Source: Bacteroidia bacterium (GTDB lineage Bacteria > Bacteroidota > Bacteroidia > JADZBD01). From it: a stretch of 57,019 bases of DNA. The stretch covers positions 1 to 57,019 of the forward strand of contig JAGVMA010000086.1 of NCBI GenBank assembly GCA_020054095.1, read 5' to 3'. The position numbers and the translations under genes are program-made. Below, piece after piece: positions 20,362-31,721 of the stretch. The stretch's first letter is position 1, and each line of letters starts with the position of its first letter. The notes below the pieces were generated by a model that was given only the letters and a program-made list of their open reading frames with translations, had not been told where the DNA came from and searched no databases.

Positions 20362-21993
20362 ATGTATAAAAAAATCGTTTTCCTATTTGCATTCTACATT
20401 TCAAATTTATTTGCTCAAACTCCCCAAGCTATTAAACCACCCACAACTCCCAAGTTGGTAATTGGCATTGTGGTTGACCAAATGCGATACGACTATATCT
20501 ATAAGTATTGGGATAAATATTCAGCCGGTGGATTTAAGCGCCTTGTGGGCGAAGGTTTTTTTTGTAAAAACACTAATTACAATTACATGCCAACATACAC
20601 CGGCCCGGGACATGCTTCCATTTATACAGGCACCACACCATCTCAGCATGGCATAATTTCTAATAGCTGGTATAATAAAACAACAAAAAAAATGATGAAT
20701 TGCGTAGAGGATGTTAGCGTGAAAACAGTTGGTGGAGTTGGAAATGCTCGCTCTCCTATTAATATGTTAACCACCACTGTTACTGATGAGTTGCGTTTAT
20801 CTAACAACAAACAATCAAAAGTTATTGGCATCTCGATAAAAGACAGAAGCGCCATACTTCCATCCGGACACACTTCGAGCGGTGCATATTGGCTCGCTAA
20901 TGACGGAAGTTTTATTACAAGCACATATTATATGACCGAATTACCTAAATGGGTTGCTGATTTTAATAGCAAAGAATTTGCAAAAAAATATACATCACAG
21001 ATATGGAACACCTTTTTACCAATTGAAACTTATACCGAGAGTTTCTCTGATAATAATATTTACGAAGGTGTTTTTACTGCGGAATCTAAACCTGTTTTCC
21101 CTCATAATATTGCAGCACTTGCAGGAGGTAAAGATGGCGTTGGTATTATTGCCCTCACGCCTTGGGGCAATACAATTTTAAAAGATTTGGCAATGGCAGC
21201 TCTGCTGGGAGAAAATTTAGGTAAAGGAAAATTCACCGATTTTTTGTGCATCAGTTTTTCCTCTACGGATATAATTGGACACATGTATGGCCCGCAGTCG
21301 GTTGAAATTGAAGACACTTACATACGATTAGACAGAGACCTTGCCGAGCTTTTAAAGTATATTGATACATGGGCAGGCAAGGCAAATACACTTGTGTTTT
21401 TAACTGCTGATCATGCAGTTGCACCTGTTCCACAATATTTGCTTGATAATAAAATACCGGCCGGTCTGTTTGATGAAGGGGATATAAAAAAGAAATTGAA
21501 CGAAATTCTTAATGTCCAATTTGGCGATTCTAATTTAATTGAGTCGGTTTCTAACCAGCAACTATTTTTGAATCACAAATTGATAAATGAAAAAAAAATA
21601 AATAAAATACAATTGTTCGAAGTTGTGTATTCGTACTTAATGACTGTGAATGGTGTAGCTACTGTTACATCTGCCGAAACTTTTATGACTACACAGTTTA
21701 CCATCTCGCCATTATCACTTATTCAAAATGGATTTAATGCAAAACGATCAGGCGATATCATTATTAATTTTGAGCCGGGATGGATGGATCATGGCAAAAC
21801 TGGAACTACACACGGCTCACCATATAGCTACGATGCGCATGTTCCGCTAATTTGGTATGGCTGGAATATTAAGCAAGGAAGTTCCATTTCTAATGTAGAT
21901 ATAACAGATATAGCACCAACCATTTCTCAGTTTTTAAATATTTCTTACCCAAATGGATGCACAGGTAAACCAATTGTAGGACTTACAAAGTAG
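20362..21993 (+). CDS. PafA-type alkaline phosphatase (phosphodiesterase superfamily)
   Basis: A 543-residue secreted enzyme (signal MYKKIVFLFAFYISNLFAQ). VIGIVVDQMRYDY holds the first metal Asp, and YMPTYTGPGHASIYTGTTPS holds the Thr nucleophile and GHAS motif. SSTDIIGHMYGP and LTADHAVAPVP supply further metal ligands, and TGTTHGSPYSYDAHVPL is the C-terminal metal His region. Known PafA enzymes release phosphate from phosphomonoesters independently of phosphate starvation. The start is ATG 20362, two bases after crcB, because the signal peptide begins there. Last gene of the operon; its end overlaps the convergent O-antigen ligase gene by 11 bases. Confidence 0.9.
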   Translation: MYKKIVFLFAFYISNLFAQTPQAIKPPTTPKLVIGIVVDQMRYDYIYKYWDKYSAGGFKRLVGEGFFCKNTNYNYMPTYTGPGHASIYTGTTPSQHGIISNSWYNKTTKKMMNCVEDVSVKTVGGVGNARSPINMLTTTVTDELRLSNNKQSKVIGISIKDRSAILPSGHTSSGAYWLANDGSFITSTYYMTELPKWVADFNSKEFAKKYTSQIWNTFLPIETYTESFSDNNIYEGVFTAESKPVFPHNIAALAGGKDGVGIIALTPWGNTILKDLAMAALLGENLGKGKFTDFLCISFSSTDIIGHMYGPQSVEIEDTYIRLDRDLAELLKYIDTWAGKANTLVFLTADHAVAPVPQYLLDNKIPAGLFDEGDIKKKLNEILNVQFGDSNLIESVSNQQLFLNHKLINEKKINKIQLFEVVYSYLMTVNGVATVTSAETFMTTQFTISPLSLIQNGFNAKRSGDIIINFEPGWMDHGKTGTTHGSPYSYDAHVPLIWYGWNIKQGSSISNVDITDIAPTISQFLNISYPNGCTGKPIVGLTK

Positions 21994-23479
21994 CTTTTTT
22001 TTCACACTCGGTTTTTTCTTTTTCAATTTGAAAAACTAAAATTGCCATACTGTAAAACACAAGTGATGCCATTTTATCTTCTTCCATAAAGCCATTAAAA
22101 ATACCATGTACAACAAAAGTGAAAAATGATAAAAGCACTGAAGTAGCAATTACTTTTTTCTTTCTATCCTTTGTGTTTTTAATATAGTTAATTGCAAAAT
22201 ATATTACGGCTAAATACAACACACAATGAATCATAAAACCCGGTGCCCCGGTTTCACACAGATATGATAAGTAATCGGAGTGTGCATGCCCTTTTGTTCC
22301 ATTAAAGGTGCTTATATAGGTCATATCCTCTCTTGTTTGGTAGTTGCCATAATAGAATTTATATGTTCTTGGACCAAACCCCAAAATGGGCTTTTCAAAA
22401 AACATTCTTACTGCACATTTCCATCTATTTATTCGCTCTTTATTTGATGCATCAGTTTTGGTGTTTGTTATTGACTTTATTTGAGTTACCAGATTTTCTT
22501 TATTACTGATAGATGAGTTGTCGGAAATTTTATTGAGCACAGTATTAATGTTGAATGATAATATCAATGCAATAAATGCTGTAATAATCAAAAACTGTTT
22601 GCCATTCATTCCAATTCTTATTAAAAATAACAGTAGCAAGCAAGCCGCTAAACTTAACCAGGCGGCACGTGAAAATGAAAAGTATTCGGCAACAATTAAC
22701 AGAAGCAATAATGCAACTAAAAATACTTGAAACAAGCTCGACTTAAAAAAATGTTTTTTATTAAATATTAAACTACATATAGGAGGAATAATAAATGCTA
22801 TGCATGCTCCATATACAGTGTGGTCATTATAAAATGGTTTGGTAATAATATATGCACCGGCTTGTTTAAAACCATAAACCGAGTGTTCCGACAGCGTATA
22901 AATTATTGGCACTATCATTCCAATGCCATAAATGATATACAATAACAGCGGGTTATTCCGTTTTTTCAGCCATATAATTGTAGTGAAATAAAAAGCTAAC
23001 ACATAACAAATTCGGATAAAAGTAAATTTTAATGAAACTAACTTCAGTTGACTTGTTGCTGAGCATAAAATCATCCAGCTAATTTCAATTAACAATATAA
23101 TACTGATTGGATGTTTGGCAATTTTTTTAACGGTAGTAATATGGGCCTTTATGTTTATGAATATGATAAAGCATACCAGCCCAATTATATATTCAGATGG
23201 AAATTGAATTTCAGTATCATTATTAAAAATGTTAACAGGTATAGATAGTGGTATTATTGCAAATAATATATAAATCAGTTTTGTAAAATTATCCAATATT
23301 ACTCCCGCAACTAGAAATATAAAGCTGATAAAAAAGATGAAATATATGTAGCTGTAATTTGAACTATTTACCGCAATTACTGATTGTACTGACAATAAGA
23401 TGCAACAAATAGAAAGAAATAAAAGAAAATATTTTTTTTTAAAATTTACCTGATCAACCATTTTGATTTCTATTTTCAA
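21983..23479 (-). CDS. O-antigen ligase/polymerase family membrane protein
   Basis: A protein of about 498 residues with 10-12 predicted membrane helices and the large loop typical of Wzy_C/WaaL proteins (KPILGFGPRTYKFYYG, then AHSDYLSYLCETGAPGF, with the conserved HNxxL-like HSDYL). Such proteins polymerise O-units or attach glycan to a carrier or protein. Either of two starts is possible (23479 or ATG 23461); both overlap the end of the upstream Wzz-type gene, so the two are coupled. No glycosyltransferase or flippase is in the window. Confidence 0.85.
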   Translation of the reverse strand: MKIEIKMVDQVNFKKKYFLLFLSICCILLSVQSVIAVNSSNYSYIYFIFFISFIFLVAGVILDNFTKLIYILFAIIPLSIPVNIFNNDTEIQFPSEYIIGLVCFIIFINIKAHITTVKKIAKHPISIILLIEISWMILCSATSQLKLVSLKFTFIRICYVLAFYFTTIIWLKKRNNPLLLYIIYGIGMIVPIIYTLSEHSVYGFKQAGAYIITKPFYNDHTVYGACIAFIIPPICSLIFNKKHFFKSSLFQVFLVALLLLLIVAEYFSFSRAAWLSLAACLLLLFLIRIGMNGKQFLIITAFIALILSFNINTVLNKISDNSSISNKENLVTQIKSITNTKTDASNKERINRWKCAVRMFFEKPILGFGPRTYKFYYGNYQTREDMTYISTFNGTKGHAHSDYLSYLCETGAPGFMIHCVLYLAVIYFAINYIKNTKDRKKKVIATSVLLSFFTFVVHGIFNGFMEEDKMASLVFYSMAILVFQIEKEKTECEKKATL

Positions 23480-24392
23480 GTATATGTTTCAAGTAAATTC
23501 CCAAAAACATAAATAATGCTGACCCGAAAAATGTTATAATAACATTAAACTGTATTAAAGGAAACGATTTGGTGTAGATTGGATAGGCATTGTCTATAAC
23601 ATAAAATTTTGTTATTGGACTGTTGTATATGTTTAAAGCGTTTTCGTATTTGCCTTTTAACTCATTTAATCTATTGTTTTCGTTAATGTATTTTTGAGAC
23701 ATTACTTCTAATTCAATTTCTTCCGGCTGATTTTTTGTATTGGAATTAGTTGTAATATTCACATTTACATTCGTAAGCATAACTCTACTTGAGTTTATTT
23801 TTTCTCGCAGTTTTGCAATTTTCATGTACAGCGTATCCACTTCGTTTTTTTTCTCTTCATACATGTTTTTAAATGATATAATCGCTTCACCACTATTTGT
23901 TTTTAGAAGTCGCTCCCTGCATTTTTGCAATACATCTAACATGTATGCTGCAATTTGTTTTGAAAAAATAGGGTCATACGTTTCAACTTCTATAACAATA
24001 GACATTACGTTTGTACGAAAGCAAATTATCCGTTTTCTAAATAGCTCAGTCAGTTTATCACGCCAAGCGTATTCTAGCGTATCTATCTCAAAATAGTTTG
24101 TAAGATAAAATTTTTTTACTACCGAATCTTTTATTTGTTCTGAATTTAGAAGCTGCAACAGTCTGTCTGCTTCAATGTCGAAACCAAACTGCGGATTACT
24201 TAGCGCGTTTTCTAACGATGTGTTTAATGGAACAAAAAACGATGCTTTCGCTTTATATCGTGGTTTTACGATAAATGAAAATATTAGGGAAATACTCGTG
24301 CAAATCAAAACTACGATGGCAATCAAATACTTTTTTCCGTTGTATTCGCTTAATAGTTTTTTATCAAATAATTGTCCGTTATTATTGTCCAT
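23454..24392 (-). CDS. Wzz-type polysaccharide chain-length protein
   Basis: The 312-residue protein has two membrane helices, near residues 20-42 (YLIAIVVLICTSISLIFSF) and 280-300 (FNVIITFFGSALFMFLGIYL), around a periplasmic coiled-coil domain. YKAKASFFVP just after helix 1 is the Wzz signature. There is no cytoplasmic tyrosine-kinase domain. It probably sets glycan chain length together with the downstream ligase/polymerase. It is divergent from the radical SAM operon; CAAATTTA at 24413-24420 (TAAATTTG on the minus strand) is a likely -7 box. Confidence 0.85.
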   Translation of the reverse strand: MDNNNGQLFDKKLLSEYNGKKYLIAIVVLICTSISLIFSFIVKPRYKAKASFFVPLNTSLENALSNPQFGFDIEADRLLQLLNSEQIKDSVVKKFYLTNYFEIDTLEYAWRDKLTELFRKRIICFRTNVMSIVIEVETYDPIFSKQIAAYMLDVLQKCRERLLKTNSGEAIISFKNMYEEKKNEVDTLYMKIAKLREKINSSRVMLTNVNVNITTNSNTKNQPEEIELEVMSQKYINENNRLNELKGKYENALNIYNSPITKFYVIDNAYPIYTKSFPLIQFNVIITFFGSALFMFLGIYLKHILENRNQNG

Positions 24393-24481
24393 TGTTATAT
24401 TTTTTATTGTGTCAAATTTAGCACTATATATTTTTTTTATGATAGTATAATATGAGTAATTCTTTTTATTTTTAAGGTATA

Positions 24482-25981
24482 ATGAGCAAGATACTTTTTT
24501 TTAATCCGCGCAGCGCTAATTCTAAACCCCGAATTCCAAATTCAATACTTCAAGTTGCTGCTTCGATTAACAATATGTACGAATGGGATTTTGTTGATGG
24601 TAATTTGGAGACTAACCCCCAAAATAAAATACTTGAAACATTAAATTGTGGTGATTACAATTTTTTTGCTTGTTCCGTAATGCCGGGTCCACAACTAAAG
24701 CAGGCAATTGTAATAAGCAAACAAATTCACGACCAGTTTCCGCAAATTAAAATTATATGGGGAGGATATTTTCCTTCAAATCAATATAAAGTAGTGCTCG
24801 ACTCCGGTTTTATTGATGTGGTTGTGAATGGAATGGGCGATAAATGTTTTCCGGAGTTAATTCATGCCCTGCAAAACAAATTACCACTCACTTCCATAAA
24901 TAATATTATTTTTAAGGAGAACAATCAATACATAAAAACTCCTAAGAATGAAATTTTTGATTTAGATAAATTACCGGCTTTTCCTTATGATAAGTTAAAT
25001 AGCATTTATCCTTTAAAAAAATACTTGGGTAAAACCTATTTAGGCACAGAGACTATTGCTTATCACAGCAGCTTTGGCTGCCCCTTTACTTGTTCGTTTT
25101 GTGGCATAGTTCCTATTTATAATGCACGCTGGAAAGGAAAGTCTGCGCAAGGAATTTATGATGATATACTTTATTTGAAAAATAATTTTGGCGGCAATGC
25201 CATTGAATTCCATGACAACAATTTTTTTGTTTCGGAAAGAAGGACTGCAGAATTTTCTAAACTTATTAGTAAACATAAAATGATTTGGTGGGGTGAAGGA
25301 AGAATTGATACGATTGATAAATACAAAGATGAAACATTGGCTGCCATGCGTGAAAGTGGCTGTAAAATGATTTTTTTTGGTGCTGAAACAGGTAATGATG
25401 AAATTTTAAAGCAAATGGATAAAGGCGGCACACAAACTGCCGAACAAATAGAAAAATTTGCTGCCCGACTAAAAAAATTTGACATTATTCCTGAATACTC
25501 TTTTGTGTTAGGATTACCTGCCGAAACTTCGCAGAAAGTAATGCAGCAAATTGACAATGATATAGATTTTATAAAGCGTATAAAACGTATCAATCCTACT
25601 GCAGAAATTATTATTTATGTTTACAGCCCTGTTCCCACTGAAGGTTCAGAATTATTTGAGAAAGTGAAATCGACCGGGTTTAATTTCCCGCAAAAATTAG
25701 AAGATTGGATTTCGCCTGAATGGGAGAGTTTTGATTTAAGAAAAAACCCGCTCACACCATGGTTAACTGCCGAAATGGTTGATAAAATAAAAAATTTTGA
25801 AACTGTACTCAATGGATATTATCCCACTGTGAGCGATATCCGACTAACCCCATTGAGAAGAAAAATTATTCGTTCACTTTCTTCATTACGTTATAAATTG
25901 AATTGGTACAGATTTCCTTATGAGCTAAAGTTATTGCAAAAGATATGGAAATATAGGCAACCCGAAATTCAAGGATTTTAA
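24482..25981 (+). CDS. Cobalamin-type radical SAM enzyme (A)
   Basis: A 499-residue protein. The N-terminal Rossmann part (about 1-165, KIIWGGYFPSNQ near 91-102) fits a B12-binding domain without the DxHxxG motif. The radical SAM core carries the 4Fe-4S cysteines C200, C204 and C207 in GCPFTCSFC, with FFGAETGNDEIL and YSFVLGLPAET as later strands. Enzymes of this layout methylate unactivated carbons or rearrange tetrapyrrole, hopanoid and antibiotic precursors. The C-terminal 110 residues (about 390-499) are basic and aromatic and may bind substrate. First gene of a six-gene operon. Substrate unknown. Confidence 0.85.
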   Translation: MSKILFFNPRSANSKPRIPNSILQVAASINNMYEWDFVDGNLETNPQNKILETLNCGDYNFFACSVMPGPQLKQAIVISKQIHDQFPQIKIIWGGYFPSNQYKVVLDSGFIDVVVNGMGDKCFPELIHALQNKLPLTSINNIIFKENNQYIKTPKNEIFDLDKLPAFPYDKLNSIYPLKKYLGKTYLGTETIAYHSSFGCPFTCSFCGIVPIYNARWKGKSAQGIYDDILYLKNNFGGNAIEFHDNNFFVSERRTAEFSKLISKHKMIWWGEGRIDTIDKYKDETLAAMRESGCKMIFFGAETGNDEILKQMDKGGTQTAEQIEKFAARLKKFDIIPEYSFVLGLPAETSQKVMQQIDNDIDFIKRIKRINPTAEIIIYVYSPVPTEGSELFEKVKSTGFNFPQKLEDWISPEWESFDLRKNPLTPWLTAEMVDKIKNFETVLNGYYPTVSDIRLTPLRRKIIRSLSSLRYKLNWYRFPYELKLLQKIWKYRQPEIQGF

Positions 25982-25983
25982 CT

Positions 25984-26649
25984 GTGTTAAGGAAAACAAT
26001 CAAATACATTTTATCAAAGACAAGAAAACCTTGGCTTGAAAAAAAACTGTTAAAAGAACAAATTTATGTTTACGATGAAATTCATTTGACAATTCCCTCG
26101 GGCGTTTTTCACCCCAATTATTTTTATAGCACTAAATTTTTATTAAGCTACATTAAATCACTATATGTTAAGGACAAAACTGTACTTGAACTCGGCTGTG
26201 GTAGCGGATTAATCTCACTTTATTGTGCAAAAGTAGGTGCACTCACTACAGCCGTTGATATTAGTACCAAAGCGGTGGAGACACTTAAAATAAATGCAAT
26301 TAGAAATCAATTAAAACTAAATGTGATAGAATCAAATATGTTTTCAAATCTATCCGATTCTAAATTCGATTTTATTTTTGTTAACCCACCTTACTATCCT
26401 AAAAACCCAATTTCTATTGAGCAGCACGCTTGGTATTGTGGCGAAAATCACGAATATTTTATTTCTTTTTTCTCTAAATTAATTAATCACATAAGTTCAA
26501 GTTCTCTTTGTTTAATGGTTCTTTCTGATGATTGTGATATCAAAAATATTAATCAAATAGCAGCCAAATTCTCTTTCAAAATGGATGTGCTAAAAACTAA
26601 ATCATTTTTGGCCGAGCTAAATTTTATCTACACTATTTCTTATATTTAA
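25984..26649 (+). CDS. SAM-dependent methyltransferase with NPPY motif
   Basis: A 221-residue class I methyltransferase. VLELGCGSGLISLYCAK (G71 region) binds SAM and FVNPPYYP (N134-Y137) is the catalytic loop typical of enzymes that methylate planar or amide nitrogen (HemK/PrmC, TrmN6-like). It has an extra basic N-terminus of 45 residues. GTG start at 25984, two bases after the previous stop. In this context it may act on the pathway product rather than on protein or RNA; that is inference. Confidence 0.83.
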   Translation: MLRKTIKYILSKTRKPWLEKKLLKEQIYVYDEIHLTIPSGVFHPNYFYSTKFLLSYIKSLYVKDKTVLELGCGSGLISLYCAKVGALTTAVDISTKAVETLKINAIRNQLKLNVIESNMFSNLSDSKFDFIFVNPPYYPKNPISIEQHAWYCGENHEYFISFFSKLINHISSSSLCLMVLSDDCDIKNINQIAAKFSFKMDVLKTKSFLAELNFIYTISYI

Positions 26650-26652
26650 CAA

Positions 26653-27603
26653 ATGCTTCTTGCTCCCACATCGCATACAATAAATTCTGATATAAGTATT
26701 AATGATGCTATTGATTTAGTTTCGCCAATTCTATACTTTGATATATTTAATTATCCTCTTTCGCTTTCTGAAATCCACAGTTATACTAAATTAAAGATTG
26801 AACCGGAGGTGAAATTAAAACAGTGGCTTGCTTTTTTTGTTGAGCTTGATTTAATTCAATATGCCGATGGCTTTTACGGTATTAAGAATATTGAAAATAA
26901 TATTTCCAGAAGAAAATTGGGAAACGTAATGGCCAAGACAGTATTAGCAAAAGCCGAAAAGTACATTTCATTAATCAGTAAATTTCCATTCGTTCGAGCA
27001 ATTTTTATTTCCGGCTCGTTGTCAAAAAATTATGCCGATGTTAATTCTGATGTTGATTATTTTATTGTTGCCCAAAAAAACAGATTGTGGGTGTGCCGAA
27101 CTTTACTTGTAGTGTTTAAAAAAATATTTTTATTCAATTCAAAAAAATATTTTTGTGTTAACTATTTTGTTGGTACAGATAATTTAGAGATACCTGATAA
27201 GAATATTTTTACTGCAACGGAAATTGCAACCTTGCTCCCTGTGCATAACCAGCAGGTTTATCACACCTTCTTATCTTCTAATAAATGGGTGTTTGATTTT
27301 TTTCCGAATAAACAAAACAATGCAATTTCTCACGACTCTATAAATATGTCAACCAATTATTTCGAATTTATTTTTGCAGGTAAGTTTGGCAATTGGTTAG
27401 ACGATTTTTTTATGCGAGTAACACTCAGTAGATGGAAGTCTAAATTTTCCGATTTTGATTCGGACTTATTTAATCATGCATTCAGGTCAAGGAAAAACGT
27501 GTCGAAGCATCACCCAAATAATTTTCAAAACATAGTTTTAAACGAACTTGCAATAAAAAAGCAGAAATTTATTGAAGCATTCAATACAGCTATTTATAAA
27601 TGA
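26653..27603 (+). CDS. Nucleotidyltransferase-domain protein (GS-X10-DXD)
   Basis: A 316-residue protein. FISGSLSKNYADVNSDVDYF has the polymerase-beta-type signature G121-S122-X10-D133-X-D135, so it should transfer a nucleotide to a small molecule, lipid headgroup or protein. The N-terminal 90 residues are a winged-helix-like region (FDIFNYPLSLSEIHSYT); the C-terminal part is basic with no clear motif. It overlaps the next radical SAM gene by ATGA, so translation is coupled. The target is unknown. Confidence 0.75.
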   Translation: MLLAPTSHTINSDISINDAIDLVSPILYFDIFNYPLSLSEIHSYTKLKIEPEVKLKQWLAFFVELDLIQYADGFYGIKNIENNISRRKLGNVMAKTVLAKAEKYISLISKFPFVRAIFISGSLSKNYADVNSDVDYFIVAQKNRLWVCRTLLVVFKKIFLFNSKKYFCVNYFVGTDNLEIPDKNIFTATEIATLLPVHNQQVYHTFLSSNKWVFDFFPNKQNNAISHDSINMSTNYFEFIFAGKFGNWLDDFFMRVTLSRWKSKFSDFDSDLFNHAFRSRKNVSKHHPNNFQNIVLNELAIKKQKFIEAFNTAIYK

Positions 27604-29051
27604 AAATATTTCTAACACATTCTTATTTTTTAAAATTCGACCCCAAACAATTCAATATTGGACAGCCATACGCACCAATTGGCACTTTGTATGCTGCTTC
27701 TGTTTTAAGAAAAAATGGTTACAATGTACATTTTTATGATACAATGTTTTGCACTTCGCCAACTGATATTATTGGTGAATTAAATGCATTTAAGCCCGAT
27801 TTGTTTTTGATTTATGATGACGGCTTTAATTACCTCACTAAAATGTGCCTCACAAATATGAGAGATGCTGCATTTGAAATGATACAGCTTGCCAAATTTG
27901 TAAATGCTAAAGTATTAGTTTCTAGTTCTGATTCTACTGATCATTTTAAAACATACCTCAATAGAGGAGCTGACTATATTATAAAAGGGGAAGGCGAGCA
28001 AACCTTGCTCGAAACCATTTCAACTATCAGAGACAACAGAATTGATTTTTCTTCAATTAGTGGTTTGTCATATTTTGAAAATAGTATTGTAAAATCTACA
28101 CCACCTCGAACAGTTGTTAGAGATTTAGATTCAATTCCTTTTCCGGCTTGGGATTTAATAAATATTGAACCATACCGAAATATGTGGATGAATAGTAGCG
28201 GTTATTTTTCAATGAATATGACCACTACAAGAGGGTGCCCATATAAGTGTAATTGGTGTGCCAAGCCAATTTATGGTAATCGCTATAATTCGCGCTCGCC
28301 ACAAAATGTGATTGACGAGTTATTATTGATGAAACAAAAATTTAATTTTTCTTATATTTGGTTTTGCGATGATATTTTTGGGTTAAAACCTGGCTGGGTC
28401 AATGAGTTTTCAGAGTTATTAAATAATAACAATCTTAAAATTAAATTTAAGATACAATCGAGAGTAGATTTGTTACTTCATGATAATCAGCTAAAAGCTT
28501 TGGCGGATTCAGGTTGCGATACAATTTGGGTAGGCGCAGAAAGCGGTTCGCAAAAAATATTAGATGCTATGGAGAAAGGAACAAAAGTGGAGCAGATTTA
28601 TGAAGCTACAGAATTGATGAAAAAAAATGGAATCAAACCTGCATTTTTTTTACAGTTCGGTTACCCCGGTGAAACCATTGACGATATAAATCTCACAATA
28701 AAAATGCTTAATGATTTATTGCCCGAAGATATTGGCATTTCTATCTCTTACCCGTTACCCGGAACTAAATTTTATGACAATGTAAAGGAGCAATTAAAAC
28801 AAAAAGCAAACTGGACAGATAGTGATGATTTATCACTTATGTTTAACAATGCTTACAGTCCTGCATTTTACAAGCAACTGCATCGTTACGTCCATAAAAA
28901 TTACCGAAACTGGCAAGGTATTGCTTCGTTAAAAAACTTGTTCAAAGGAAATTTTGTGCTGAACTATAAATCATTAAAAAGTGTGTTTTCTCCAATCTAT
29001 TTTGCTCCTGCATCCTATTTTGCTAAAGTAAAACTCAAATCACTTGCTTAG
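27600..29051 (+). CDS. Cobalamin-type radical SAM enzyme (B)
   Basis: A 483-residue protein. The opening PYAPIGTLYAASVLRKNGYN with FYDTMF is the B12-binding Rossmann start seen in BchE- and hopanoid-type radical SAM enzymes. The cluster motif is C213, C217 and C220 in RGCPYKCNWC. GAESGSQKILDAMEKG and FLQFGYPGET follow in the core. The C-terminal 90 residues are aromatic and basic. It resembles enzyme C (29851-31239) along its length, so B and C arose by duplication. Confidence 0.87.
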   Translation: MKIFLTHSYFLKFDPKQFNIGQPYAPIGTLYAASVLRKNGYNVHFYDTMFCTSPTDIIGELNAFKPDLFLIYDDGFNYLTKMCLTNMRDAAFEMIQLAKFVNAKVLVSSSDSTDHFKTYLNRGADYIIKGEGEQTLLETISTIRDNRIDFSSISGLSYFENSIVKSTPPRTVVRDLDSIPFPAWDLINIEPYRNMWMNSSGYFSMNMTTTRGCPYKCNWCAKPIYGNRYNSRSPQNVIDELLLMKQKFNFSYIWFCDDIFGLKPGWVNEFSELLNNNNLKIKFKIQSRVDLLLHDNQLKALADSGCDTIWVGAESGSQKILDAMEKGTKVEQIYEATELMKKNGIKPAFFLQFGYPGETIDDINLTIKMLNDLLPEDIGISISYPLPGTKFYDNVKEQLKQKANWTDSDDLSLMFNNAYSPAFYKQLHRYVHKNYRNWQGIASLKNLFKGNFVLNYKSLKSVFSPIYFAPASYFAKVKLKSLA

Positions 29052-29053
29052 CC

Positions 29054-29854
29054 ATGGAATTAACCAATGCAATATTTGATGGAGCTGCAAAAACATACGA
29101 TGCTGATTTTTCGTTTACTACGATTGGTAAATTGCAAAGGCAGAGAGTGTGGTCTTTTATAAAAAATAGATTTACAAACAAAACACATACAATCTTAGAG
29201 ATAAATTGCGGTACGGGTGAAGATGCAATATGGCTCGCCAATAATGGTCATAGAGTTATCGCAACAGATGTTTCAAATGTTATGATTACAGTCTGTCTTG
29301 GCAAAAAAATAATTAACGAAGCCCGAAACGTACAATTTTTAAATGCATCTTATTTAGATGTTCACAATAAGTTTCCAAATCAAAAATTTGATTTTATATT
29401 TTCCAATTTTGGTGGACTTAATTGCGCAAATAAATCAGACTTATCAGCACTTTCAAAATCTTTTAGCACCATGTTATGCTTAAACGGCAAATTATTATTT
29501 GTTATAATGGGCAGAAAATGTTGGATTGAGCGCACCTATTTCCTATTAAAAGGTAAAATTGCTGAGGCCAAAAGGCGCAAATCACCGAATGGAGTTCGCA
29601 CAAAAATTGGCGATAGTATTTTCTTTACATACTATTATTCGCCTAATGAAATAAAAAAAATATTTGCTGATGATTTTATTGTAAGTTTTAGAAAGCCAAT
29701 TGGAATAACAATACCTCCATCTTACTTGGAAAAATATTTTTCTAATAAAAAATTACTTTTATCTGTTTTGAACAAATGCGAAAGTTTATTTGGGTGTTTC
29801 CCATTTTTGTCGAATTATGCCGATCATTACTTAATTGAGCTCACAAAACGATGA
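29054..29854 (+). CDS. SAM-dependent methyltransferase
   Basis: A 266-residue class I methyltransferase. ILEINCGTGEDAIWLANNGH (about 47-66) and VIATDVS form the SAM site, with FDFIFSNFGGLNC as the post-motif strand. It lacks NPPY, so an O- or C-methylation role is more likely than for the first methyltransferase. A basic lid (KGKIAEAKRRKSP) follows near residue 168. It sits 2 bases after enzyme B and overlaps enzyme C by ATGA. Confidence 0.85.
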   Translation: MELTNAIFDGAAKTYDADFSFTTIGKLQRQRVWSFIKNRFTNKTHTILEINCGTGEDAIWLANNGHRVIATDVSNVMITVCLGKKIINEARNVQFLNASYLDVHNKFPNQKFDFIFSNFGGLNCANKSDLSALSKSFSTMLCLNGKLLFVIMGRKCWIERTYFLLKGKIAEAKRRKSPNGVRTKIGDSIFFTYYYSPNEIKKIFADDFIVSFRKPIGITIPPSYLEKYFSNKKLLLSVLNKCESLFGCFPFLSNYADHYLIELTKR

Positions 29855-31239
29855 AGATAGTTTTTACTCATGGGTACTTTTTAAATGATGATGCGAAAGA
29901 GCAAGCTATCATGCGACCGTACTCTCCACTCGGAATCCTTTACCTATCATCTCATCTTGAAAAGAATGGTTTTTCAAATAGTATTTTCGATACTACATTT
30001 TCGAGTTTTGATACATTGAAAGAGTATTTATATGCTGAATTGCCCGACATTGTTGCTATTTACACTAACCTGATGACTAAACTTAATGTGCTTAAAATAC
30101 TTTCATACATTAAAATATCTGATAAATTAAAACACACTAAAATTATTTTGGGTGGACCGGAGGTAAAGAATCATTCAAGTAATTTTATAAATGCCGGAGC
30201 TGATTATGTTATAGTTGGCGAAGGCGAAGAAACTATGCTTGAACTAACCAAATTTCTTTCCGGTGAAAATATTATGCTCAAAGAAATTTGCGGAATTGTT
30301 TACAGAGGCGAAAATGACTTGATAGTTACAAATGCAGAGCGAGCACTCATTAAAAATATTGATTCACTATCATTTCCTAATAGAAGTAAAATTAATTTTC
30401 AGTTGTATTTAGATGCATGGAAAAATGCACACGGCATGAGTACACTTTCAATGAGCACCATGCGTGGCTGCCCTTACACCTGTAACTGGTGTAGCAGGGC
30501 TGTTTATGGATTGAGCTATAGAAGAAGAAGCCCTAAGCTTGTTGTTGATGAAATTATTTTTCTTCAACAAAATTATCTGTTTGATTCAATTTGGTTTGTT
30601 GACGATGTTTTTACCATAAGCCACAAATGGCTTGAAGAATTCGCTACAGAAATTAAAATGAGAAATGTTAGCGTTAAATACGAATGCATAACTCGAGCAG
30701 ACAGAATGAATGATAGCGTTGTATCATTGCTGAAACAAAGTGGCTGTTTCCGAGTTTGGATTGGAGCAGAAAGTGGTTCGCAAAAAATTATTGATGCGAT
30801 GGATAGGCGAGTAAAAGTGGAACAAGTAGGTAGTATGATTAAGTTGTCGCAAGAAGCAGGTATGGAAGCAGGAACATTTATTATGCTGGGCTATCCGGGG
30901 GAAACCGAGAAAGATATTGCACAAACATTACATCACTTAAAAAAATCAAATCCTGATTTATATACTATAACTATTGCTTATCCTATTAAAGGAACACAAT
31001 TGTATGCCGAAGTAGAAAGTAATTTTGTGGAAAAATTAGATTGGAATTTATCAACCGATAGAGATATTGATTATAAACGAACTTATAAACGGAAGTATTA
31101 CGATTATGCAGTTAGATGGGTGTATAATGAAATGGCATTACACAAAGAAAAAGGAAAGCAACATCCTAACTATTTTAAATATCCCTATTATATGATAAAA
31201 TCGTTTGGTTCGAGGCTTGGTATGTCTTTCCACCGTTAG
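29851..31239 (+). CDS. Cobalamin-type radical SAM enzyme (C)
   Basis: A 462-residue paralogue of enzyme B. It shares the opening MKIVFTHGYFLNDDAKE and PYSPLGILYLSSHLEKNGF, the LGGPEVKNHSSNF strand of a B12-binding domain, and C207, C211 and C214 in RGCPYTCNWC. GAESGSQKIIDAMDR and IMLGYPGET match enzyme B closely. The last 70 residues end RLGMSFHR. The stop overlaps that of the convergent haem lipoprotein gene. Last gene of the operon. Confidence 0.87.
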   Translation: MKIVFTHGYFLNDDAKEQAIMRPYSPLGILYLSSHLEKNGFSNSIFDTTFSSFDTLKEYLYAELPDIVAIYTNLMTKLNVLKILSYIKISDKLKHTKIILGGPEVKNHSSNFINAGADYVIVGEGEETMLELTKFLSGENIMLKEICGIVYRGENDLIVTNAERALIKNIDSLSFPNRSKINFQLYLDAWKNAHGMSTLSMSTMRGCPYTCNWCSRAVYGLSYRRRSPKLVVDEIIFLQQNYLFDSIWFVDDVFTISHKWLEEFATEIKMRNVSVKYECITRADRMNDSVVSLLKQSGCFRVWIGAESGSQKIIDAMDRRVKVEQVGSMIKLSQEAGMEAGTFIMLGYPGETEKDIAQTLHHLKKSNPDLYTITIAYPIKGTQLYAEVESNFVEKLDWNLSTDRDIDYKRTYKRKYYDYAVRWVYNEMALHKEKGKQHPNYFKYPYYMIKSFGSRLGMSFHR

Positions 31240-31721
31240 TGAAAATCAAATGTAAGTACTTGGTCATTTATAGCTGCATTGTGACAGGAAGTACAAACTC
31301 CTGCATCTTTTAAAACGCTGTATATTATCTCTCCATCTGGTTTATATTCCCCCCATAGCCATGCTCCATTTTTTTTAAACATTACAGCATATAAAGTTCT
31401 GTTCCCGTTTGCCGCATCAAATGCTTCTTTAACAATTACTGATGAATCTGGGAATGTGCCATTTGAAGGTAGCTCGCCAGTTTGTACATCTAACGCTGTT
31501 TGTGCCTTTGCATTAAATAATAATCTGAATATTCCGTGTGGGCTGCCACCTGCGGGTGGTAAAAACAATGCATTTTGATAATAACGGTATCCTGAAGTAT
31601 CAATACATAAGTTGTACATAAACGCATCGTTTATTTGACCAATAATTGCCCCCTTGTCCTTAGTACATGAAATAATTATCAATACAATAAGCGTGAATGT
31701 ATACGTTATTTTTTTTCGCAT
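31236..31721 (-). CDS. c-type haem lipoprotein (cytochrome P460-like)
   Basis: A 161-residue lipoprotein (signal ends LIIISCTKD, Cys19). One haem c attachment motif CTSCH lies near residue 145 (DAGVCTSCHN), preceded by NGAWLWGEYKPDGEI. This order (Trp-rich strand, short link, CxxCH, short tail) resembles cytochrome P460-fold proteins. No distal Met is obvious, so it could bind a gas or peroxide rather than only carry electrons; that is inference. It is convergent with, and unrelated to, the radical SAM operon. Confidence 0.7.
   Translation of the reverse strand: MRKKITYTFTLIVLIIISCTKDKGAIIGQINDAFMYNLCIDTSGYRYYQNALFLPPAGGSPHGIFRLLFNAKAQTALDVQTGELPSNGTFPDSSVIVKEAFDAANGNRTLYAVMFKKNGAWLWGEYKPDGEIIYSVLKDAGVCTSCHNAAINDQVLTFDFH

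What the first reader, a model, noticed from the sequence alone, without database searches (positions are those of the whole stretch)
24482..31239. Six-gene operon with three cobalamin-type radical SAM enzymes, two methyltransferases and a nucleotidyltransferase
Seen: three CxxxCxxC radical SAM proteins (cysteines at 200/204/207, 213/217/220 and 207/211/214), each with an N-terminal Rossmann region; two class I methyltransferases, one with NPPY; one GS-X10-DXD nucleotidyltransferase. Genes are separated by 2-3 bases or overlap as ATGA, so they form one coupled unit. Known: this radical SAM layout (BchE, HpnP/HpnR, tetraether and GDGT-ring synthases) performs carbon methylation, C-C bond formation and ring changes on lipids, tetrapyrroles and natural products. 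Inference: a dedicated pathway modifying a lipid, glycan or small molecule, perhaps linked to the divergent Wzz/ligase genes. I know no described system with exactly this set. This is my main candidate for an undescribed system.
Basis: partly seen in the sequence, partly recalled or inferred. Interest (0 to 1): 0.78.

Follow-up and report, generated by a model that had tools for sequence, protein, structure and literature searches.

The report
Radical-SAM cassette tied to surface polysaccharide
A set of genes for three vitamin-B12-type radical enzymes, two methyltransferases and a nucleotidyltransferase travels together through distantly related bacteria with genes for making surface polysaccharides, which suggests an undescribed pathway that chemically remodels sugars in a cell-surface polymer.

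Summary
The six genes are present as described (24482-31239, one strand, gaps of 2-3 bases or ATGA overlaps). The cassette is a conserved, mobile unit, not a local accident. In 295 genomes of the class, S2 (second radical SAM) occurs in 41; all 41 carry NT, all 27 S3 genomes carry S2, and 30 of 31 S1 genomes carry S2 (Fisher 3e-28 to 5e-45). All six in the window's order recur in seven other loci; NT-S2-MT2 reaches Ignavibacteria and Chlorobiota, and in a Chloroflexi MAG NT is fused to S2. The divergent Wzz/Wzy pair (21983-24392) belongs to the system: its Wzy clade is distinct from the class-wide Wzy, and the top-scoring members occur only in cassette genomes, even when unlinked. Neighbours elsewhere are glycosyltransferases, flippases, Wzy, O-acetylation and FkbM genes. 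The radical SAM proteins fall far below every named family's cut-off; S3 models as a class 1 cobalamin radical SAM enzyme. Best reading: Wzy-dependent surface-polysaccharide synthesis in which cobalamin-type radical SAM enzymes and methyltransferases remodel carbons of a sugar or repeat unit. Glycan context is well supported; substrate and reactions are inferred. New variant of a known kind; no description found.

The parts
21983..23479 (-). Wzy_C-domain polymerase/O-antigen-ligase-like membrane protein (498 aa); member of a cassette-associated Wzy clade
   Evidence: PF04932 88.4 bits; clade separate from class-wide Wzy, support 99/95 and 100/100
23454..24392 (-). Wzz chain-length determinant (312 aa), overlaps wzy
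   Evidence: PF02706 31.7 bits, over cut-off 25.5; paired with the clade's Wzy in other cassette genomes
24393..24481 (.). 89-base AT-rich divergent intergenic region, presumed to hold promoters for both directions
   Evidence: sequence; inference
24482..25981 (+). S1: radical SAM protein with N-terminal B12-binding-like Rossmann domain (499 aa), CPFTCSFC at 200-207
   Evidence: in 31 of 295 class genomes, 30 of them with S2
25984..26649 (+). MT1: class I methyltransferase, MTS type with NPPY (221 aa), partner of S1
   Evidence: PF05175 66.7 bits; alignment; follows S1 directly in 16 of 50 distinct loci
26653..27603 (+). NT: winged-helix domain plus minimal/KNT-like nucleotidyltransferase (316 aa); D133 and D135 invariant
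   Evidence: in all 41 S2 genomes; fused to S2 in L041
27600..29051 (+). S2: B12-type radical SAM protein (483 aa), CPYKCNWC at 213-220, FNYL in the Rossmann domain invariant in 53 of 53
29054..29854 (+). MT2: class I SAM-dependent methyltransferase (266 aa), partner of S2
   Evidence: PF13649 48.9 bits; follows S2 directly in 38 of 50 distinct loci
29851..31239 (+). S3: B12-type radical SAM protein (462 aa), paralogue of S2 (about 36% identity), CPYTCNWC at 207-214
   Evidence: AF2 model pLDDT 90 matching AprD4, OxsB, MgmA, CysS, TsrM over nearly the full length

Best explanation
The window holds an eight-gene module, Wzy and Wzz on one strand and S1-MT1-NT-S2-MT2-S3 on the other, for a Wzy-polymerised cell-surface polysaccharide carrying an unusual sugar or repeat-unit modification. 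Proposed mechanism. (1) Glycosyltransferases and a flippase, encoded elsewhere in the genome, build a lipid-linked oligosaccharide. (2) In the cytoplasm, before flipping, NT places a nucleotidyl group on, or otherwise activates, a hydroxyl of the sugar or its carrier and hands it to S2, with which it works as a pair. (3) S2 and S3, cobalamin-type radical SAM enzymes, abstract hydrogen from an unactivated sugar carbon and methylate it, deoxygenate it or rearrange the ring; S1 performs a further radical step. (4) MT1 and MT2 methylate nitrogen or oxygen atoms. (5) Wzz and Wzy polymerise or ligate the modified units outside. Shown: gene order, co-occurrence, fusion, glycan neighbourhood, Wzy phylogeny, predicted folds of S3 and NT. 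Inferred: substrate, stage, order of steps and each reaction.
For: Conserved unit: 50 distinct S2 loci, S2-MT2 adjacent in 38, NT-S2 in 35, MT2-S3 in 26, S1-MT1 and MT1-NT in 16 each; whole six-gene order in 8 loci including the window. Co-occurrence in 295 genomes: NT in 41 of 41 S2 genomes, S2 in 27 of 27 S3 genomes and in 30 of 31 S1 genomes. NT fused to S2 in a Chloroflexi MAG (NT 11-299 on 15-298, S2 3-483 on 321-804). Glycan context in several phyla: GT1/GT4, PMT_2, GT9, GT87, GT2, Polysacc_synt flippase, Bac_transf, Wzy_C, MBOAT plus AlgX-like O-acetylation, FkbM, NAD epimerase. Cassette-associated Wzz-Wzy clade in the same genomes even when unlinked. In two genomes without detected S2, NT still lies beside Wzz/Wzy (L114, L117). 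S3 fold: AprD4 Z 30.3, OxsB 30.0, MgmA 28.8, CysS 28.0, TsrM 26.5, with five Rossmann strands and a following hairpin as described for class 1 cobalamin radical SAM enzymes (PMC13331322). HMM alignments put invariant Asn73 of S3 and Asn77 of S2 on OxsB Asn186, the residue below cobalt (PMC13331322). The genome has other B12-binding proteins.
Against: No glycan structure is known from any carrier. In the window itself the only glycan genes beside the cassette are Wzz and Wzy. Cofactor binding is untested; B12-binding scores of S1 and S2 sit at the cut-off, and AprD4, the closest fold, is understood (own knowledge) not to need cobalamin. The Asn186 correspondence rests on sequence alignment alone, and in another alignment M75 of S3 falls on TokK Trp76. 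A nucleotidyltransferase step of this kind in polysaccharide tailoring has no direct precedent known to me. Four of the six independent Wzy genomes belong to one family (f38), so they are not fully independent.
Confidence: 0.62

Rival explanations
1. The cassette modifies a membrane lipid or glycolipid head group (for example like HpnJ, which turns a hopanoid-linked glucosamine into a cyclitol ether), and Wzz/Wzy are only neighbours.
For: HpnJ, BchE and a ladderane-cluster radical SAM family are among the best NCBIfam hits of S1-S3. HpnJ acts on a lipid-linked aminosugar (PMC12583986).
Against: All scores are far below cut-offs. The Wzz-Wzy clade co-occurs even when unlinked. Flippase, polymerase and O-acetylation neighbours recur. 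No hopanoid or lipid synthesis genes were seen to recur beside the cassette.
Confidence: 0.15
2. A secreted glycosylated small-molecule natural product is made; glycosyltransferases decorate it and an ABC transporter exports it.
For: Some loci hold an ABC transporter, amidohydrolase, SPASM radical SAM proteins and an AMP-ligase/carrier protein (L048). Cobalamin radical SAM enzymes are common in natural-product pathways (PMC13331322).
Against: No backbone-making gene (NRPS, PKS, terpene synthase, RiPP precursor) was recognised among the recurring families that were annotated; polymerase and chain-length genes fit a polymer better.
Confidence: 0.13
3. A phosphonate or phosphinate decoration of the glycan: NT makes a nucleotide-activated phosphorus group and S3 is a PhpK-like P-methyltransferase, comparable in outline to the O-methyl phosphoramidate of Campylobacter capsules (own knowledge).
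For: S3 scores PhpK (TIGR04479) at 152.7 bits, level with BchE; nucleotidyltransferase plus two methyltransferases in one unit.
Against: PhpK cut-off is 600 bits. None of 26 cassette genomes has a PEP mutase over cut-off; only two weak hits. NT resembles KNT/minimal nucleotidyltransferases.
Confidence: 0.04
4. NT is a regulator or antitoxin-like AMP-transferase (winged helix plus MNT fold) and only five genes form the enzymatic pathway.
For: Foldseek's best hits are MNT antitoxins of HEPN/MNT pairs; N-terminal winged helix.
Against: No recurring small partner gene was seen next to NT; NT is in every S2 genome and is fused to S2 in L041, which fits an enzymatic partner. This rival concerns one step and is compatible with the main explanation.
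Confidence: 0.2

Closest known systems
Class 1 cobalamin-dependent radical SAM enzymes (OxsB, TsrM, TokK; also CysS and MgmA)
   Same: N-terminal five-strand Rossmann domain with hairpin, CxxxCxxC radical SAM core, similar full-length fold
   Different: Only 14-21% identity; no NCBIfam equivalog reached; no OxsB-like extra N-terminal domain; glycan gene context
AprD4, radical SAM 1,2-diol dehydratase of apramycin biosynthesis
   Same: Best fold match to S3 (Z 30.3, 421 of 453 residues); same size; acts on an aminosugar (paromamine, PDB title)
   Different: 67.9 bits of cut-off 500 in NCBIfam for S3; antibiotic pathway; no nucleotidyltransferase partner known to me
HpnJ (hopanoid cyclitol-ether synthesis)
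   Same: B12-type radical SAM protein acting on a lipid-linked sugar (PMC12583986); among the best family hits
   Different: 112-136 bits of cut-off 577.6; no hopanoid genes nearby
BchE, anaerobic Mg-protoporphyrin ester cyclase
   Same: Best NCBIfam hit of all three (120, 158, 154 bits)
   Different: Cut-off 481; no tetrapyrrole genes nearby
Wzx/Wzy-dependent surface-polysaccharide loci
   Same: Wzz, Wzy, glycosyltransferases, flippases, O-acetylation genes beside the cassette
   Different: Three cobalamin-type radical SAM enzymes with an NT are not part of any described locus I could find
Kanamycin/ANT(4') and minimal nucleotidyltransferases
   Same: Catalytic-domain fold of NT (Z 8.7 over 113 residues); DxD
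   Different: Extra N-terminal winged helix; 15-18% identity; operon with radical SAM genes

Membership tests
Radical SAM superfamily | PF04055 over cut-off and CxxxCxxC | tested here: met
   45.8, 80.1 and 71.5 bits against 29.5; motif in all three
Cobalamin-dependent radical SAM, class 1 | N-terminal Rossmann B12-binding domain followed by a hairpin | tested here: met
   S3 only: PF02310 51.9 bits, model strands and hairpin, fold match to OxsB and TsrM. S1 and S2 borderline by sequence, not modelled
Cobalamin-dependent radical SAM, class 1 | binds cobalamin and needs it | not testable with these tools
   needs purified protein
BchE (TIGR02026) | score over equivalog cut-off 481.35 | tested here: not met
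   120.3, 157.7, 154.4 bits
HpnJ (TIGR03471) | score over equivalog cut-off 577.6 | tested here: not met
   111.6, 136.1, 129.7 bits
HpnR (TIGR04367) | score over cut-off 650 | tested here: not met
   46.5, 85.9, 87.9 bits
PhpK P-methyltransferase (TIGR04479) | score over cut-off 600 | tested here: not met
   103.7, 113.6, 152.7 bits; no PEP mutase over cut-off in 26 carriers
AprD4 (NF033070) | score over cut-off 500 | tested here: not met
   52.2, 69.1, 67.9 bits
Wzy/Wzz-dependent polysaccharide pathway | Wzy_C and Wzz over Pfam cut-offs next to the cassette | tested here: met
   88.4 of 31.7 and 31.7 of 25.5 bits; clade co-occurs with cassette
Wzy/Wzz-dependent polysaccharide pathway | loss of surface polymer on deletion | not testable with these tools
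   needs mutants
Nucleotidyltransferase, Pol beta superfamily | Pfam Polbeta over cut-off | tested here: not met
   20.3 of 26.9 bits
Nucleotidyltransferase, Pol beta superfamily | fold and conserved GS...DxD | tested here: inconclusive
   KNT/ANT Z 8.6-8.7 over 110-113 residues, just above background; D133 and D135 invariant in 19 rows

The most novel reading that the evidence does not exclude
S2 and S3 are not methylases but OxsB/HpnJ-like enzymes that contract or otherwise rearrange sugar rings on a nucleotide-activated or lipid-linked saccharide, so that the bacteria polymerise a surface polysaccharide from carbon-skeleton-rearranged sugars, with NT supplying the nucleotide handle.
Probability: 0.2. 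Interest if true: 0.88.

Novelty: new variant of a known kind. Interest (0 to 1): 0.64.

Why it matters
Cobalamin-type radical SAM enzymes are known from antibiotics, tetrapyrroles and hopanoids, yet I found no paper that places a set of them in bacterial surface-polysaccharide synthesis. If right, many Bacteroidota and members of other phyla build envelope glycans with radical chemistry, which would explain part of the large pool of unassigned B12-type radical SAM proteins and give a defined gene set for finding new sugars. The tight NT-S2 pairing, including a natural fusion, makes a direct biochemical test possible.

Tried and rejected
Named-family placement: no NCBIfam equivalog reached for any of the six. 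Phosphonate route: no PEP mutase over cut-off in 26 carriers. Plasmid spread: no S2 relative at E 1e-40 in the plasmid collection. Presence of a Wzy as evidence: useless on its own, because 245 of 295 genomes have one; only the clade is informative. Literature: five searches combining radical SAM or B12-binding with polysaccharide, Wzy, O-antigen or Bacteroidetes terms gave nothing relevant, nor did a similarity-network search; the library holds only open-licence papers. Sequence search of NT against solved structures gave nothing significant.
Full report
OBSERVATION. S1, S2 and S3 are Radical_SAM proteins with an N-terminal B12-binding-like domain; MT1 is an MTS-type methyltransferase with NPPY; MT2 is a class I methyltransferase; NT is a weak Pol-beta-type nucleotidyltransferase. 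No gene reaches the cut-off of any NCBIfam equivalog; the radical SAM proteins hit BchE, HpnJ, PhpK and a lipid/ladderane family best, at no more than about 0.4 of the cut-offs.

CONSERVED UNIT. Homologues of S2 were collected from whole genomes of the class and from a named genome collection. The genes cluster in Sediminibacterium, Paraflavitalea, MAGs labelled Chitinophaga pinensis, Winogradskyella, Ignavibacteriales and Chlorobiota, and in reduced form in Chloroflexi, Actinomycetota and Acidobacteria MAGs. Over 50 distinct S2 loci, S2-MT2 are neighbours in 38, NT-S2 in 35, MT2-S3 in 26, S1-MT1 in 16, MT1-NT in 16; the complete six-gene order stands in eight loci, the window included (three loci had been fetched twice and were removed). 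In the Chloroflexi MAG L041 NT and S2 are one 835-residue protein. CxxxCxxC is kept in 38 of 38 S1, 53 of 53 S2 and 34 of 35 S3 proteins (not checked why one S3 row lacks it).

CO-OCCURRENCE. Profiles were run over the same 295 genomes of the class. S2: 41 genomes. S1: 31. NT: 46. S3: 27. Every S2 genome has NT, every S3 genome has S2, and 30 of 31 S1 genomes have S2; Fisher p values over all pairs run from 2e-21 to 5e-45, and the 41 genomes fall in 21 families. The tests treat genomes as independent, which overstates significance, but the spread over families shows that this is not one lineage. A same-family genome (G001) has no match for S1, S2, S3 or NT at the limits used. With the lower G+C of the stretch (29-34% against mostly 35-38% on either side) and housekeeping neighbours such as adenylate kinase and Obg, this looks like a gained island.

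LINK TO A SURFACE POLYSACCHARIDE. (a) Wzz and Wzy lie divergent to S1 in the window and near cassette genes in L023, L038, L060, L075, L046, L085 and others. A Wzy of this general family is in 245 of 295 genomes, so presence alone means nothing. The tree of 26 Wzy proteins separates the class-wide copy (100/100) from a clade that holds the window's Wzy (99/95). The twelve best-scoring hits all come from cassette genomes. Six of these genomes were not in the query alignment (G172, G110, G229, G239, G077, G261); in G172, G229 and G077 the pair is on another contig and in G261 about 210 kb away. All six have a Wzz next to it. Four of the six are from one family, and lower-scoring members in other genomes were not examined. 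(b) In cassette loci the recurring neighbours are glycosyltransferases (one GT1/GT4-type family in 17 loci), PMT_2, GT9, GT87 and GT2 types, flippases, an initiating sugar transferase, Wzy_C proteins, MBOAT with an AlgX-like protein, FkbM methyltransferases, an acyltransferase and an NAD epimerase, in Bacteroidota, Ignavibacteria, Chlorobiota, Chloroflexi and Actinomycetota. (c) In two genomes without detected S2, NT is directly beside Wzz/Wzy (L114, L117; L114 is a short contig).

PROTEINS. The S3 model (pLDDT 90) has five Rossmann strands and a following hairpin, the layout described for class 1 cobalamin radical SAM enzymes (PMC13331322). It matches AprD4 (Z 30.3), OxsB (30.0), MgmA (28.8), CysS (28.0) and TsrM (26.5) over nearly its whole length. 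In OxsB, Asn186 of the loop after strand 3 lies below the cobalt, where TsrM has Arg69 and TokK Trp76 (PMC13331322). The HMM alignments place Asn73 of S3 and Asn77 of S2 on Asn186; the motifs holding them are kept in 35 of 35 and 53 of 53 proteins. S1 has MPGP in that loop instead. OxsB is a ring-contracting, non-methylating enzyme, so this hints at non-methylating chemistry for S2 and S3, but the review itself leaves open whether reaction type can be predicted from this residue, and another loop residue of S3 (M75) aligns with TokK Trp76. The NT model (pLDDT 88.5) shows a winged-helix domain and a catalytic domain closest to ANT(4')/kanamycin nucleotidyltransferase (Z 8.7 over 113 residues), with MNT antitoxins as Foldseek's best hits; these Z values are only just above background. 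The genome encodes three other B12-binding proteins over cut-off, so cobalamin is probably in use.

MODULARITY. Several loci without S3 in the fetched stretch (L029, L047, L048, L060) carry instead a SPASM radical SAM protein next to S2, and others add a further methyltransferase. NT-S2-MT2 looks like the core, to which S3, S1-MT1 or other radical SAM and methyltransferase genes are added, as would be expected for a varying surface glycan. This last step is inference.

MECHANISM. Shown: composition, coupling, co-occurrence, fusion, glycan context, predicted folds of S3 and NT. Inferred: that the substrate is a sugar of a nucleotide-linked or lipid-linked unit; that NT prepares it for S2; that S2, S3 and S1 perform carbon-centred radical steps; that MT1 and MT2 finish it; that Wzz/Wzy polymerise it. 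The precedents are AprD4 (radical change of an aminosugar), OxsB (ring contraction, PMC13331322; its nucleotide substrate is own knowledge) and HpnJ (lipid-linked glucosamine to cyclitol ether; PMC12583986).

NOVELTY. No open-licence paper found describes such a set; subscription papers were not searchable. Each protein belongs to a known superfamily, and the pathway type (Wzy-dependent glycan) is known; the combination is new to me. I file it as a new variant of a known kind.

Noticed in passing
window 22000-31300: G+C is 29-34% against mostly 35-38% in the flanks; with the housekeeping neighbours and absence in the same-family genome G001 this suggests an acquired island.
   Followed up: partly
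L117:9876-13852 and L114:71-3761: In genomes without detected S2, NT lies directly next to Wzz and Wzy (and an MT2-like gene in L117), a possible simpler version of the system.
   Followed up: partly
L029:8942-9991, L047:9875-10930, L048:8298-9371, L060:9128-10180: A SPASM-type radical SAM protein sits among the cassette genes in loci that lack S3, as if it replaced S3.
   Followed up: partly
L041:9041-11548: Natural fusion of NT and S2 in a Chloroflexi MAG (835 aa).
   Followed up: yes
L035:5354-6817 and L065:11314-12729: A second S1-like protein (27-28% identity) next to S1.
   Followed up: no
L023:1166-3881 and L049:4698-7488: MBOAT and AlgX-like SGNH genes, as in alginate O-acetylation, directly beside S1.
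   Followed up: partly
L024, L033, L052, L057, L106, L107, L110 (family f11): A putative lipoprotein of about 380 aa without Pfam match recurs beside S1, S3 or the Wzz-Wzy pair.
   Followed up: no
window 31236-31239: S3 and the convergent gene 31236-31721 overlap by 4 bases.
   Followed up: no
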